Source: Actinomycetes bacterium (GTDB taxonomy: Bacteria; Actinomycetota; Acidimicrobiia; UBA5794). Taken from it: a DNA stretch of 5,456 nt. The stretch covers positions 1 to 5,456 of the forward strand of contig JAUVQC010000108.1 of assembly GCA_030598305.1 (NCBI GenBank), written 5' to 3'. The translations under genes were made by a program, and so were the position numbers. The notes under the pieces were generated by a model. That model searched no databases. It was not told where the DNA came from and was given only the letters and a program-made list of their open reading frames with translations. Positions within the stretch are counted from its first letter, which is position 1. Each line of letters starts with the position of its first letter. Shown in pieces: positions 1 to 5,085 of the stretch.

Positions 1-680
1 AGGATGTTGAGGAACCCGTGTCGTTCAATCCCGATGCTGTCATCGAAGTGGCGGATCGGCTGATGGAGTCCTGCGGTTGCTTTGAAGGGGAGCCTGCGCC
101 TCGTCGCCGTCACGATGAATTCCGCAACTTCGGCGGAAGTCGGAAACAGATCCTTGGTCAGGCCGCCGCATCTCAGCTTCGCACCACCGACCCTGTTTCG
201 TCGGCCAAGTGCATCGGCGATGATGTCGACCTGGTCGGTGATCGAAGTGTCCCTGTTGACCTCGATGAACGGCACGACGTCAGTCGCCACGGAGAGCATG
301 GCATCCAGCAGTGCGTCGGTGGCAGATGGTGTGGCTCCAGGCAGTCGGGCCTCAGCCGCGGCGACAGTCATGACAGGGTCCATCTCGGCTTGGAAGTCAA
401 TCGCCAGCGCGGCCGATTCACCGGGTGGAAGATCGAACACAACCGCCACCTCCCAAGGTGGTTCGCCAGACCGGAATGTGGTCGTTGCGACAGACGCGAG
501 TTCAGTGAGTTGGGACGCACGGCATAGGAATCGCCCCGCGACCCATGCGTGGTTGCCATCACGTAGAGCCAGATACTCGTCAACAGCGTCCTGCATCGAC
601 CGCTTGGCGGGCGGGAAAAGGCCTGCGTAGTCGACCAGGGCAGCGAACGCTGCGGTTCGCGCGTCGAGGACGAGTCTCAT
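1..680 (-). CDS. Conserved protein of unknown function downstream of hmgA (C-terminus cut off by window edge)
   Basis: The frame is open from an ATG at 680-678 to the left edge of the window, giving 226 complete codons with no stop, so the C-terminus is missing. The start overlaps the hmgA stop as ATGA, which suggests translational coupling and a shared transcript. Visible motifs are YAGLFPPA (residues 18-25), WVAGRF (46-51), FIEV (138-141), GGAKLRCGG (165-173), PFKATAGLHQPIRH (198-211) and GFLN (222-225). The Lys/Arg/Gly-rich and KATAGLH motifs look like active-site loops of a soluble alpha/beta enzyme. I see no signal peptide or membrane segment. I recall this motif set from uncharacterised bacterial proteins, but I know of no assigned activity. 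The position beside hmgA and hppD suggests a part in tyrosine or homogentisate catabolism; this is inference. It does not look like a fumarylacetoacetase or a maleylacetoacetate isomerase, the usual next enzymes. The gene is well supported; its function is unknown. Confidence 0.85.
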   Translation of the reverse strand, partial: MRLVLDARTAAFAALVDYAGLFPPAKRSMQDAVDEYLALRDGNHAWVAGRFLCRASQLTELASVATTTFRSGEPPWEVAVVFDLPPGESAALAIDFQAEMDPVMTVAAAEARLPGATPSATDALLDAMLSVATDVVPFIEVNRDTSITDQVDIIADALGRRNRVGGAKLRCGGLTKDLFPTSAEVAEFIVTATRRRLPFKATAGLHQPIRHFDDSIGIERHGFLNI

Positions 681-1843
681 CGACCCTCGAGCCATGTCCA
701 TGCATAGCCATCGTCCTCACAATCGCGGGCTCCCGGCCCGAGGTCGAGTGGTCTGAAGGTGTCGATCATCACCGCGAGTTCCTCGGTCCCCTCTCTGCCG
801 ATCGAAGCCTCAACGGACCCTGGCTGTGGACCATGGGTGTGGCCTGCGGGGTGGAGTGAGATCGAGCCACGCTCGATACCGGAACCCTTGCGCGACATGA
901 AGTTGCCATCCACATAGAACAGAACCTCGTCGCTGTCGACATTCGCATGGTTGTAGGGAGCGGGGATCGCGTCCGGGTGGTAGTCGAAGAGTCGCGGAAC
1001 GAACGAACACACGACCACACCTGGTGCTTCAAAGGTCTGGTGGACCGGCGGAGGTTGATGGATACGCCCCGTGATCGGCTCGAAGTCATGGATCGAGAAC
1101 TTGTAGGGGTACAGACAGCCATCCCAGCCCACGACATCGAATGGGTGGTGCTCGTAAACGAACCGGGTCAATCCGCCCTTGTGCTTCACGAGAACTTCGA
1201 CGTTTGAGGCTTCGCGTTGGAGCGGTGCCGTCGGGCCATGCAGGTCGCGTTCGCAGTACGGGGCGTGCTCGAGCAATTGCCCGTTGCGCGAGAGATACCG
1301 CTTTGGGGGACCTATGTGGCCACGTGTTTCAAGGACCAATGCCCTGACCGGATCGGACGATTCGTCAAGTACGTACCGGTGGATGACCGAGGCCGGGATG
1401 ATCAGGTAGTCGCCAGGACCGAACGAAATGGCGCCGAAGACGGTTTCGAGCACGCCGGTGCCTTGCTCGATGTAAACCATCTCGTCACCCGTCGCGTTCT
1501 TGTAGAGGTCAGAGTCATCCGATCCGACGAAGTACGAGATGGCGCAATCCTCGTTCGCCATGAGCAGTGCCCTCGCTCGCACGGCATCGCCTCCCGCCTT
1601 GAGCTGGTGCGTCTTGAAGTGTCGCGGCATGAGTGGGTGGTTGGGGGTGTGTCCCTGATCCTCGGCCTCGACAGCTTCGATCGACTTGAGACCGGTCGGG
1701 ATGTGCTTGTGGTAGAGCAGTGCAGAGTCGAAGGAGAAGCCCTCCTCTCACATCAGTTCCTCCGCGTATAGGGAACCGTCCGGCTGGCGGAACTGGACGT
1801 GGCGTTTCGCGGGGATCTCCCCCACTGATCGATAGTACGGCAT
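677..1843 (-). pseudogene. hmgA: Homogentisate 1,2-dioxygenase, interrupted by an in-frame TGA at codon 32
   Basis: The product would be the iron-dependent cytoplasmic dioxygenase that opens the homogentisate ring to maleylacetoacetate in tyrosine catabolism. The frame runs from ATG at 1843 to TGA at 677-679: 389 codons, near the length usual for bacterial members. Residues 1-31 (start MPYYRSVGEIPAKRH, end LYAEELM) and residues 33-70 (EEGFSFDSALLYH onward) are both typical of the family N-terminus. Codon 32 between them is TGA where glycine is expected. Downstream the frame is intact. It holds the RIHQPPPVHQTF motif (about residues 261-272) and the probable iron ligands His299 and Glu306 (in NHANVDSDE) and His337 (in HTHGPQPG). 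The open part after the stop can first restart at Met72 (base 1630; 317 residues), but no ribosome binding site precedes that ATG and the conserved N-terminus would be lost. The gene is divergent from hppD and overlaps the downstream gene by 4 bases. It could be a true nonsense allele or a base error; the family assignment is firm. Confidence 0.9.
1748..1750 (-). other. hmgA: In-frame TGA stop at codon 32 of hmgA
   Basis: On the minus strand the codons read GAA CTG ATG TGA GAG GAG GGC, i.e. ELM-stop-EEG. Homologues as I recall them have a glycine here, so one G-to-T change (GGA to TGA) explains the stop. Frame and family similarity are continuous on both sides, so no frameshift is involved. 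Other genes in the window end in TGA (the ABC ATPase, the permease, the lipoprotein and hmgA itself), so TGA is not a general sense codon here. Confidence 0.9.
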
Positions 1844-1953: not shown

Positions 1954-3069
1954 ATGGACACCGACCTGACATTGAGGGCAAAGGAATTCGCATCCAACGA
2001 CCCGTTCCCGATGAAGGGCTTCGGGCCGATCGAATGGTGGGTCGGGAACGCATTCATGACTGCGCAGGCGTTCCGGTCCCTGCTCGGGTTCGAGATCGTC
2101 GGATATGCTGGTCCTGAAACCGGCGTTCGGGACCGCTCCTCCTATCTCCTGAGGGCGGACCAGATCTCCTTCATCGTTTCGGGTACCCAGGGCCCGGACC
2201 ACGAGATCGCCGACCACGTGAAGCTTCATGGTCCCGGAGTCAAGGACGTCGGCTTCCTCGTACCGGACGCCTTTGCGGCCTTCGAGAGCGCGACCGAGCG
2301 AGGCGCTGAGCCGCACATGGAACCGATCGTGATCGAGAACGACACCGGTCGGATGGTCCAGGGGACCATCAAGGCGTATGGCGATACGGTGCACTCGCTC
2401 ATCGAGCTCGACGGTGACGACCCGAGGTTCGAGGCCCGCAAGGATTCGATCGCGCGCTCCACGGGGCTCCACGCCGTCGACCACGTCGTTGCCAACGTCG
2501 AACTCGGCAAGATGAACGAATGGGTGGACTTCTATGACCGGATCTTCTCGTTCACCATGTTGAAGCACTTCGACGATGATGCGATCTCGACGGAATACAC
2601 GGCACTCATGTCCAAGGTGATGTCCGGAGGAAACGGGATCATCAAGCTCCCGATCAACGAGCCGGCCCAGGGCAAGAAGAAGAGCCAGATCGAGGAGTAT
2701 CTCGATTTCTACCGCTCTGCGGGCGTCCAACATCTGGCGTTGTCAACCGATGACCTGCAAACTTCCATCGAGGACATCCATAGCAGGGGCATCGAGACGA
2801 TCTATGTTCCCCACGAGTACTACCCCGAGGCCAAGGAGCGCCTCTCGGACGTCGACCTCGATTGGGACGAGATCGAACGACTCAGCATTCTCGTTGACCA
2901 GGACGATGACGGGTACCTCCTCCAAGTGTTCTCCAAGATGCTGCAGGACCGACCGACCGTCTTCTTCGAGTTCATCGAGCGGAGGGGTGCAACCGGATTC
3001 GGCCTCGGGAACTTCAAAGCACTCTTCGAGTCCATCGAGCGCGAGCAGGCAAAGCGCGGCAACCTGTAG
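1954..3069 (+). CDS. hppD: 4-hydroxyphenylpyruvate dioxygenase
   Basis: This is the cytoplasmic non-haem Fe(II) enzyme that turns 4-hydroxyphenylpyruvate and O2 into homogentisate and CO2, the step before HmgA in tyrosine breakdown. The 371-residue length is normal for bacterial HPPDs. Two vicinal-oxygen-chelate domains are visible, at about residues 20-155 and 170-345. The probable iron triad is His177 (in AVDHVV), His260 (in VQHLAL) and Glu339 (in FFEFIERR). The spacing of 83 and 79 residues matches, as I recall it, that of the Streptomyces enzyme. Family motifs include LPINEPA (232-238) and the C-terminal GFGLGNFKALFESIE (348-362), which belongs to the helix that closes the active site. 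The related hydroxymandelate synthase is the main alternative, but the C-terminal motif and the neighbouring hmgA favour HPPD. The ATG follows a strong ribosome binding site. The TAG stop shares its last base with the GTG start of the ABC ATPase. Confidence 0.96.
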   Translation: MDTDLTLRAKEFASNDPFPMKGFGPIEWWVGNAFMTAQAFRSLLGFEIVGYAGPETGVRDRSSYLLRADQISFIVSGTQGPDHEIADHVKLHGPGVKDVGFLVPDAFAAFESATERGAEPHMEPIVIENDTGRMVQGTIKAYGDTVHSLIELDGDDPRFEARKDSIARSTGLHAVDHVVANVELGKMNEWVDFYDRIFSFTMLKHFDDDAISTEYTALMSKVMSGGNGIIKLPINEPAQGKKKSQIEEYLDFYRSAGVQHLALSTDDLQTSIEDIHSRGIETIYVPHEYYPEAKERLSDVDLDWDEIERLSILVDQDDDGYLLQVFSKMLQDRPTVFFEFIERRGATGFGLGNFKALFESIEREQAKRGNL

Positions 3070-4725: not shown

Positions 4726-5085
4726 ATGAAGAGAACGGTGATCAGCATTATTGCCGGTGCGTTGGTGCTTGCTGCCTGCGGCGGAGGGTCCGTGTTGAGT
4801 GCGGATCAGGAGCAGTGGTGCTGGGACAACTCAGAAATCGTGGGCGACGCCGCCGGCGACCTCGGCTTGCTCGATTTCGTCGATGTGTACTACGAGAAGA
4901 ACGGCGACGGCATCGGTTCGAATGGCGAACCCGAGTTCACCACCCGGAACGTTGAGTTGAGCGAGGAACTGAAGCGGCGGAATGCTTCCGATGGGGAAGC
5001 GCTCTTCAACGATCTCTTCGAGACGTATCTGACCCATGCCGACGGCCAGAAGGCTTGCATCGCCGCCCACGCCGAGGAATCCTGA
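4726..5085 (+). CDS. Small lipoprotein of unknown function
   Basis: The 119-residue protein begins MKRTVISIIAGALVLAAC: a basic N-terminus, a hydrophobic core and a lipobox L-A-A-C with Cys18 as the lipidated residue. It should therefore be exported and anchored to the outer face of the membrane after signal peptidase II cleavage. The mature part starts GGGS, a typical flexible linker, and is acidic. Cys32 (in QWCWDN) and Cys111 (in KACIAAH) could form a disulfide. I do not recognise the domain. The start was chosen because the lipoprotein signal begins exactly there, with AGGG at 4714-4717 eight bases upstream; the same frame is open much further upstream but only overlaps the permease out of phase. 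The gene is co-oriented with the ABC genes and could be in their operon as an accessory protein, or independent. It ends one base from the convergent ppk2 stop. Confidence 0.88.
   Translation: MKRTVISIIAGALVLAACGGGSVLSADQEQWCWDNSEIVGDAAGDLGLLDFVDVYYEKNGDGIGSNGEPEFTTRNVELSEELKRRNASDGEALFNDLFETYLTHADGQKACIAAHAEES

What the first reader, a model, noticed from the sequence alone, without database searches (positions are those of the whole stretch)
1748..1750. Single in-frame TGA splits an otherwise intact homogentisate dioxygenase gene
The hmgA frame reads through 389 codons with family-typical sequence on both sides of one TGA at codon 32, in the position of an expected glycine (GGA to TGA). All later catalytic residues are kept and there is no other stop or frameshift. 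Either this is a very recent nonsense mutation, a base-call or assembly error, or a leaky stop that is read through. Decay is too slight for an old pseudogene.
Basis: partly seen in the sequence, partly recalled or inferred. Interest (0 to 1): 0.75.

Follow-up and report, generated by a model that had tools for sequence, protein, structure and literature searches.

The report
One-base stop in homogentisate dioxygenase gene
A tyrosine-breakdown gene from an uncultured actinobacterium-like contig carries one stop codon near its start, where the relatives compared have glycine; it looks like a fresh loss-of-function change or a sequencing error, not a new way of reading the genetic code.

Summary
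On the minus strand, 1843-677 is one 388-codon homogentisate dioxygenase (hmgA) frame with a single internal stop: TGA, codon 32, at 1750-1748. Of 108 non-duplicate loci with a hit, 98 cover codon 32 and 98 of 98 have glycine there, none with an internal stop at an aligned codon. The nearest relative with DNA (L001, 88% identity) has GGA, one base from TGA; the next four have GGC or GGT. Of the 120 listed homologous proteins (of 7,998 hits), 116 align a glycine and 4 start further in. The presumed iron ligands are kept, no residue deviates at positions conserved at 95% or more, and four neighbouring frames have no internal stop. Recoding is not supported: TGA ends four frames in the window, and none of 1,137 neighbouring codons is TGA. 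The next ATG, GTG or TTG in frame is codon 72; the part lost holds three predicted strands of the dioxygenase fold. What remains is a recent nonsense allele or a consensus error, not separable without reads. Ordinary, low interest.

The parts
677..1843 (-). hmgA frame (homogentisate 1,2-dioxygenase type), 388 codons plus stop, one internal TGA
   Evidence: the model of relative P0001 matches solved homogentisate dioxygenases
1748..1750 (-). internal TGA, codon 32, at a glycine position invariant in the 69-sequence alignment
1751..1843 (-). codons 1-31, the only part translated in frame from the usual start if TGA terminates
677..1630 (-). mechanical restart ORF of 317 aa from the next ATG (codon 72); keeps the presumed iron ligands H299, E306, H335 but lacks three predicted strands
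   Evidence: ligand numbering transferred from PMC6193087 (passages)
1954..3069 (+). divergent neighbour without internal stop, 4-hydroxyphenylpyruvate dioxygenase (makes homogentisate)
   Evidence: (TIGR01263, 384.4 bits against cut-off 277)
3..701 (-). protein without family match, downstream of hmgA, overlapping its stop; a protein with a similar start follows hmgA in L001; runs off the window

Best explanation
A real, recent, single-base nonsense substitution in a standard actinobacterial hmgA. Ribosomes stop at codon 32, no in-frame ATG, GTG or TTG lies before codon 72, so little or no active dioxygenase is made. Because the divergent 4-hydroxyphenylpyruvate dioxygenase gene is open, homogentisate would be expected to build up (pyomelanin phenotype). 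Shown: the stop, its absence from the relatives compared, the intact surroundings. Inferred: that the base is real, that termination is efficient, and the metabolic outcome.
For: Single internal stop in 388 codons. Glycine at the codon in 98 of 98 loci that cover it, and no internal stop at any aligned codon of those loci. L001, the nearest with DNA, has GGA, one base away. No residue of the window deviates at positions conserved at 95% or more among the 120 listed proteins. TGA is also the end of hmgA itself, the ABC ATPase, the permease and the small 4726-5085 ORF. The HPPD frame is open. In Bacillus thuringiensis, loss of HmgA gives homogentisate build-up and pigment (PMC6193087, passages including part of the abstract).
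Against: A null allele has to be the sequence the assembler chose, although the gene shows purifying selection (pN 0.062 against a saturated pS 0.67 to L001). One isolated substitution is equally what a consensus error gives. The next four relatives with DNA have GGC or GGT, not GGA, so the one-base path rests on L001 being the best guide. No reads and no own genome were available; the nearest listed proteins are 94% (hmgA) and 91% (HPPD) identical, and closer members may lie hidden inside their 90% clusters.
Confidence: 0.5

Rival explanations
1. Consensus or base-call error: the genome has glycine at codon 32 and the contig carries one wrong base, for instance from low coverage or oxidative damage in library preparation.
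For: If the true codon is as in L001, the change is G to T on the coding strand (C to A on +), the class that ex vivo guanine oxidation makes (PMC12390751, abstract read). Gene and neighbours are otherwise well kept. No whole genome is held for the window, which fits a lone metagenome contig. One other hmgA of the searched order, in G102, has a single frame break near codon 246, so isolated breaks occur in such assemblies, cause unknown.
Against: Only 130 of 3,483 possible single substitutions in this gene make a stop, so a given error is unlikely to do so. No internal stop was seen in the four neighbouring frames.
Confidence: 0.4
2. Leaky or regulated stop: UGA at codon 32 is partly read through, giving a low level of full-length enzyme.
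For: The frame stays open and conserved after the stop. Bacterial stop readthrough of 10^-3 to 10^-2 is reported (PMC10057733, passages), and a changed tryptophan tRNA raises UGA readthrough in E. coli (PMC13092985, passages).
Against: 0 of 98 relatives have the stop. The 82 nt around and after it fold no better than shuffles (z +1.38, 187 of 200 shuffles fold at least as well; one length tried). No Rfam match at gathering score. Conservation after a recent lesion is expected without readthrough. Suppressor tRNAs could not be sought: no own genome is held.
Confidence: 0.06
3. Changed genetic code (UGA = glycine, NCBI table 25, as in Gracilibacteria and Absconditabacteria) or selenocysteine.
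For: The expected residue is glycine, the very residue of table 25 (PMC8629427, passages; the table number is recalled).
Against: Reading TGA as Gly would lengthen four frames by at least 226 (to the window's end), 49, 236 and at least 124 (to the window's end) residues; the hmgA relatives end where the window's hmgA ends. No TGA among 1,137 codons of the four neighbouring frames, whose 97 glycine codons are all GGN. The window is 61% G+C, the cited clades 0.21-0.53. No relative has cysteine at codon 32.
Confidence: 0.01
4. The gene really starts downstream and codons 1-31 are not needed.
For: P0012 and P0016 are annotated from Met31, and P0022, P0023, P0080, P0081 start further in.
Against: In the window Met31 is followed directly by the TGA; the next ATG, GTG or TTG in frame is codon 72 (rarer start codons not tested). 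114 of the 120 listed proteins carry the upstream part. Three predicted strands lie in residues 27-58 and the model aligns to P. putida homogentisate dioxygenase from residue 11.
Confidence: 0.03

Closest known systems
Short bacterial HmgA, e.g. Bacillus thuringiensis BMB171 HmgA (390 aa; PMC6193087, passages)
   Same: Length class (388 against 390) and iron-ligand spacing: H298, E305, H334 there, H299, E306, H335 here. Loss of function there gives pigment.
   Different: The lesion there is a missense change, here a nonsense codon; the sequence of that protein was not aligned here.
Pseudomonas putida and human homogentisate 1,2-dioxygenase (3zds, 4aq2, 1ey2)
   Different: About 20% identity; this subfamily scores far below the TIGR01015 cut-off.
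Isolated nonsense alleles and consensus errors in metagenome contigs (general knowledge, recalled)
   Same: One in-frame stop, no other decay seen, stop not shared by the relatives compared.
   Different: Nothing found that sets this case apart.

Membership tests
Homogentisate 1,2-dioxygenase (HmgA) | Pfam PF20510 HgmA_N above gathering score | tested here: met
   Restart ORF 45.2 bits against 20.2; relatives P0001, P0002, P0021 43-45 bits
Homogentisate 1,2-dioxygenase (HmgA) | NCBIfam TIGR01015 equivalog cut-off (510.75 bits) | tested here: not met
   71.1 bits for the restart ORF, 66-68 bits for three full-length relatives: a divergent short subfamily, so the stop is not the reason
Homogentisate 1,2-dioxygenase (HmgA) | Fe(II) ligands His, Glu, His | tested here: met
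   H299, E306, H335 present in the window frame, identified only by numbering from PMC6193087 with an offset of one
Homogentisate 1,2-dioxygenase (HmgA) | Overall fold | tested here: met
   Relative P0001 only, not the window: mean pLDDT 82.6; the 11 best Foldseek PDB matches are homogentisate dioxygenases
Homogentisate 1,2-dioxygenase (HmgA) | Gene beside the homogentisate-making enzyme | tested here: met
   Divergent HPPD at 1954-3069
Homogentisate 1,2-dioxygenase (HmgA) | Enzyme activity on homogentisate | not testable with these tools
   No assay
Programmed stop codon readthrough | Stop conserved among relatives | tested here: not met
   0 of 98 loci covering the codon
Programmed stop codon readthrough | Full-length product made in the cell | not testable with these tools
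   No proteomics
UGA = glycine code (table 25) | UGA used at glycine positions throughout and not as stop | tested here: not met
   within this window only
Selenoprotein | Cys or Sec at the position in relatives | tested here: not met
   Glycine in 98 of 98 loci and 116 of 120 listed proteins (4 gapped)

The most novel reading that the evidence does not exclude
A population-level hmgA null allele has recently become dominant in an uncultured actinobacterium, turning it into a natural homogentisate (pyomelanin) secretor, with residual UGA readthrough leaving a trace of enzyme.
Probability: 0.08. Interest if true: 0.35.

Novelty: already known. Interest (0 to 1): 0.12.

Why it matters
If real, it is one more naturally broken hmgA, a gene whose loss is a familiar route to pyomelanin. 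If an error, it is a reminder that a single stop in one metagenome contig says little. Either way it gives no evidence for recoding. The clean conservation makes it a tidy example of telling a lesion from recoding.

Tried and rejected
Rejected: table 25 code, selenocysteine, programmed readthrough, old pseudogene, downstream start. The codons for Glu-Glu-Gly just after the stop spell a Shine-Dalgarno-like GAGGAGG, but no ATG, GTG or TTG follows in frame until codon 72.

Led nowhere: synonymous change, saturated against the 7 relatives compared (pS 0.63-0.67), so the stop cannot be dated; own-genome search (none held); metagenome scan (cap 0); viral contig pattern scan (0 matches); distant DNA search of plasmids (23 records, 60-80% identity) and protein search of plasmids (199 records, one at 60-80%, the rest under 60%); a degenerate pattern in the 110 loci (29 with a match), not used; promoter and terminator scan of 1500-2100 (none found); tRNA scan of the window (none). 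Paper searches seen as listings: bacterial readthrough with metagenome terms (3 papers), oxidative artefacts (9 papers, 8 listed), UGA as glycine (20, 6 listed), UGA readthrough context (38, 10 listed), hmgA and pyomelanin (18, 12 listed), premature stops in metagenome assemblies (0). From those listings five papers were opened: PMC8629427, PMC6193087, PMC13092985 and PMC10057733 for passages and PMC12390751 for its abstract. The tRNA test suggested by PMC13092985 needs a genome.

Dropped or replaced: L081 and L082 left out as duplicates of L001 and L002; 10 of the remaining 108 loci did not cover codon 32. The first codon count missed minus-strand loci and was replaced. In one search the small ORF was sliced one base off, so its row there is out of frame and not used; searches give its true frame. 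The structure alignment used 69 of the 120 listed proteins. In one search, 43 of 138 genomes of the order had any match, many of them only distant (27-31% identity); one such weak match (G048, 26%) holds a TAG and is not an orthologue.

Full report
What is there. The window carries, on the minus strand from 1843 to 677, a homogentisate dioxygenase (hmgA) frame of 388 codons plus stop, with one internal TGA at codon 32, 1750-1748. The mechanical ORF list therefore shows only a 317-aa ORF from codon 72. Divergent from it, 1954-3069 is a 4-hydroxyphenylpyruvate dioxygenase frame without internal stop (TIGR01263, 384.4 bits against a cut-off of 277), the enzyme that makes homogentisate. Next come an ABC ATPase, a permease-like protein, a small lipoprotein-like ORF and the end of a polyphosphate kinase 2 gene. 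Downstream of hmgA a protein without family match overlaps the hmgA stop; a protein with a similar start follows hmgA in L001.

Is the stop inside the gene? Yes. Of the 120 listed homologous proteins (of 7,998 hits), 116 align a glycine at codon 32 and 4 (P0022, P0023, P0080, P0081) begin downstream of it; P0012 and P0016 are annotated from Met31; the other 114 extend upstream. In the 69-sequence alignment G32 is an invariant column. On DNA, after removing two duplicate loci, 108 loci had a hit, 98 covered codon 32 and 98 of 98 have a glycine codon (GGC 47, GGG 27, GGT 15, GGA 9); none of the 98 has an internal stop at an aligned codon. These loci come from capped lists: the best 80 of 593 and the loci kept from the order search. 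L001, a metagenome-assembled actinobacterium and the closest with DNA (87.9% over 388 residues), has GGA; the next four have GGC, GGC, GGT and GGT. So a one-base path from GGA is likely but rests on one relative.

Is the rest decayed? Not visibly. At positions conserved at 95% or more in the other sequences the window has no deviant residue; 44 of 121 sequences, the window included, have none and 77 have one or more. Non-synonymous difference to L001 is 0.062 per site overall: 0.056 in codons 1-31, 0.095 in codons 33-71 and 0.058 from codon 72 on. Codons 33-71 are also the highest of the three parts against L083, L084, L085, L086 and L002, but not L087; this looks like a variable stretch rather than decay, though the same split was not computed between the relatives themselves. 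Synonymous difference is saturated at 0.67, so the stop cannot be dated. The presumed iron ligands H299, E306 and H335 are present, by numbering from the B. thuringiensis protein (H298, E305, H334; passages of PMC6193087).

Could the stop be read? TGA ends hmgA itself, the ABC ATPase, the permease and the small ORF; reading it as glycine would add at least 226 (to the window's end), 49, 236 and at least 124 (to the window's end) residues, and no TGA occurs among 1,137 codons of the four neighbouring frames, whose 97 glycine codons are all GGN. The clades that read UGA as glycine have 0.21-0.53 GC (passages of PMC8629427) against 0.61 here. The 82 nt around and after the stop fold no better than shuffles (z +1.38), there is no Rfam match at gathering score and no tRNA in the window. 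Suppressor tRNAs elsewhere in the genome cannot be checked, as no whole genome is held. The stop is in none of the 98 relatives covering the codon, so there is no sign of an evolved recoding site.

Mutation or error? The evidence cannot decide. For an error: if the true codon is as in L001, the change is G to T, the class made by guanine oxidation during library preparation (abstract of PMC12390751), and the gene is otherwise well kept. For a mutation: only 130 of 3,483 single substitutions in this gene make a stop, so a given error is unlikely to do so, and hmgA loss is tolerated and gives pigment in B. thuringiensis (passages of PMC6193087). Another hmgA of the same order, in G102, has one frame break near codon 246; it shows that single breaks occur in such assemblies, not why. 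I put 0.5 on a real recent allele, 0.4 on an error, and the rest on leaky, start-site and code readings.

Family. By fold, ligands, Pfam and neighbourhood this is a homogentisate dioxygenase type gene; it misses the TIGR01015 equivalog cut-off by far (71 bits against 511), and so do three full-length relatives (66-68 bits), so it belongs to a divergent short subfamily. Activity on homogentisate is inferred, not tested.

Verdict. Observation confirmed; interpretation partly supported (mutation or error stay open, leaky stop unlikely). Ordinary.

Noticed in passing
window 3-701 (-): Protein without Pfam or NCBIfam match, overlapping the hmgA stop; a protein with a similar start follows hmgA in L001 too. 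A stop early in hmgA could reduce its translation if the two are coupled.
   Followed up: partly
L098 (G102), about 2000: A relative's hmgA is split in two frames by one frameshift near codon 246; otherwise family-like on both sides. Mutation or assembly error not resolved.
   Followed up: partly
window 677-1843 (-) and relatives P0001, P0002, P0021: This short HmgA subfamily scores only 66-71 bits against the TIGR01015 cut-off of 511, so that naming model does not cover it.
   Followed up: partly
window 4726-5085 (+): Small lipoprotein-like ORF (signal-like start, LAAC box by eye) between the ABC permease and a polyphosphate kinase 2 gene.
   Followed up: no
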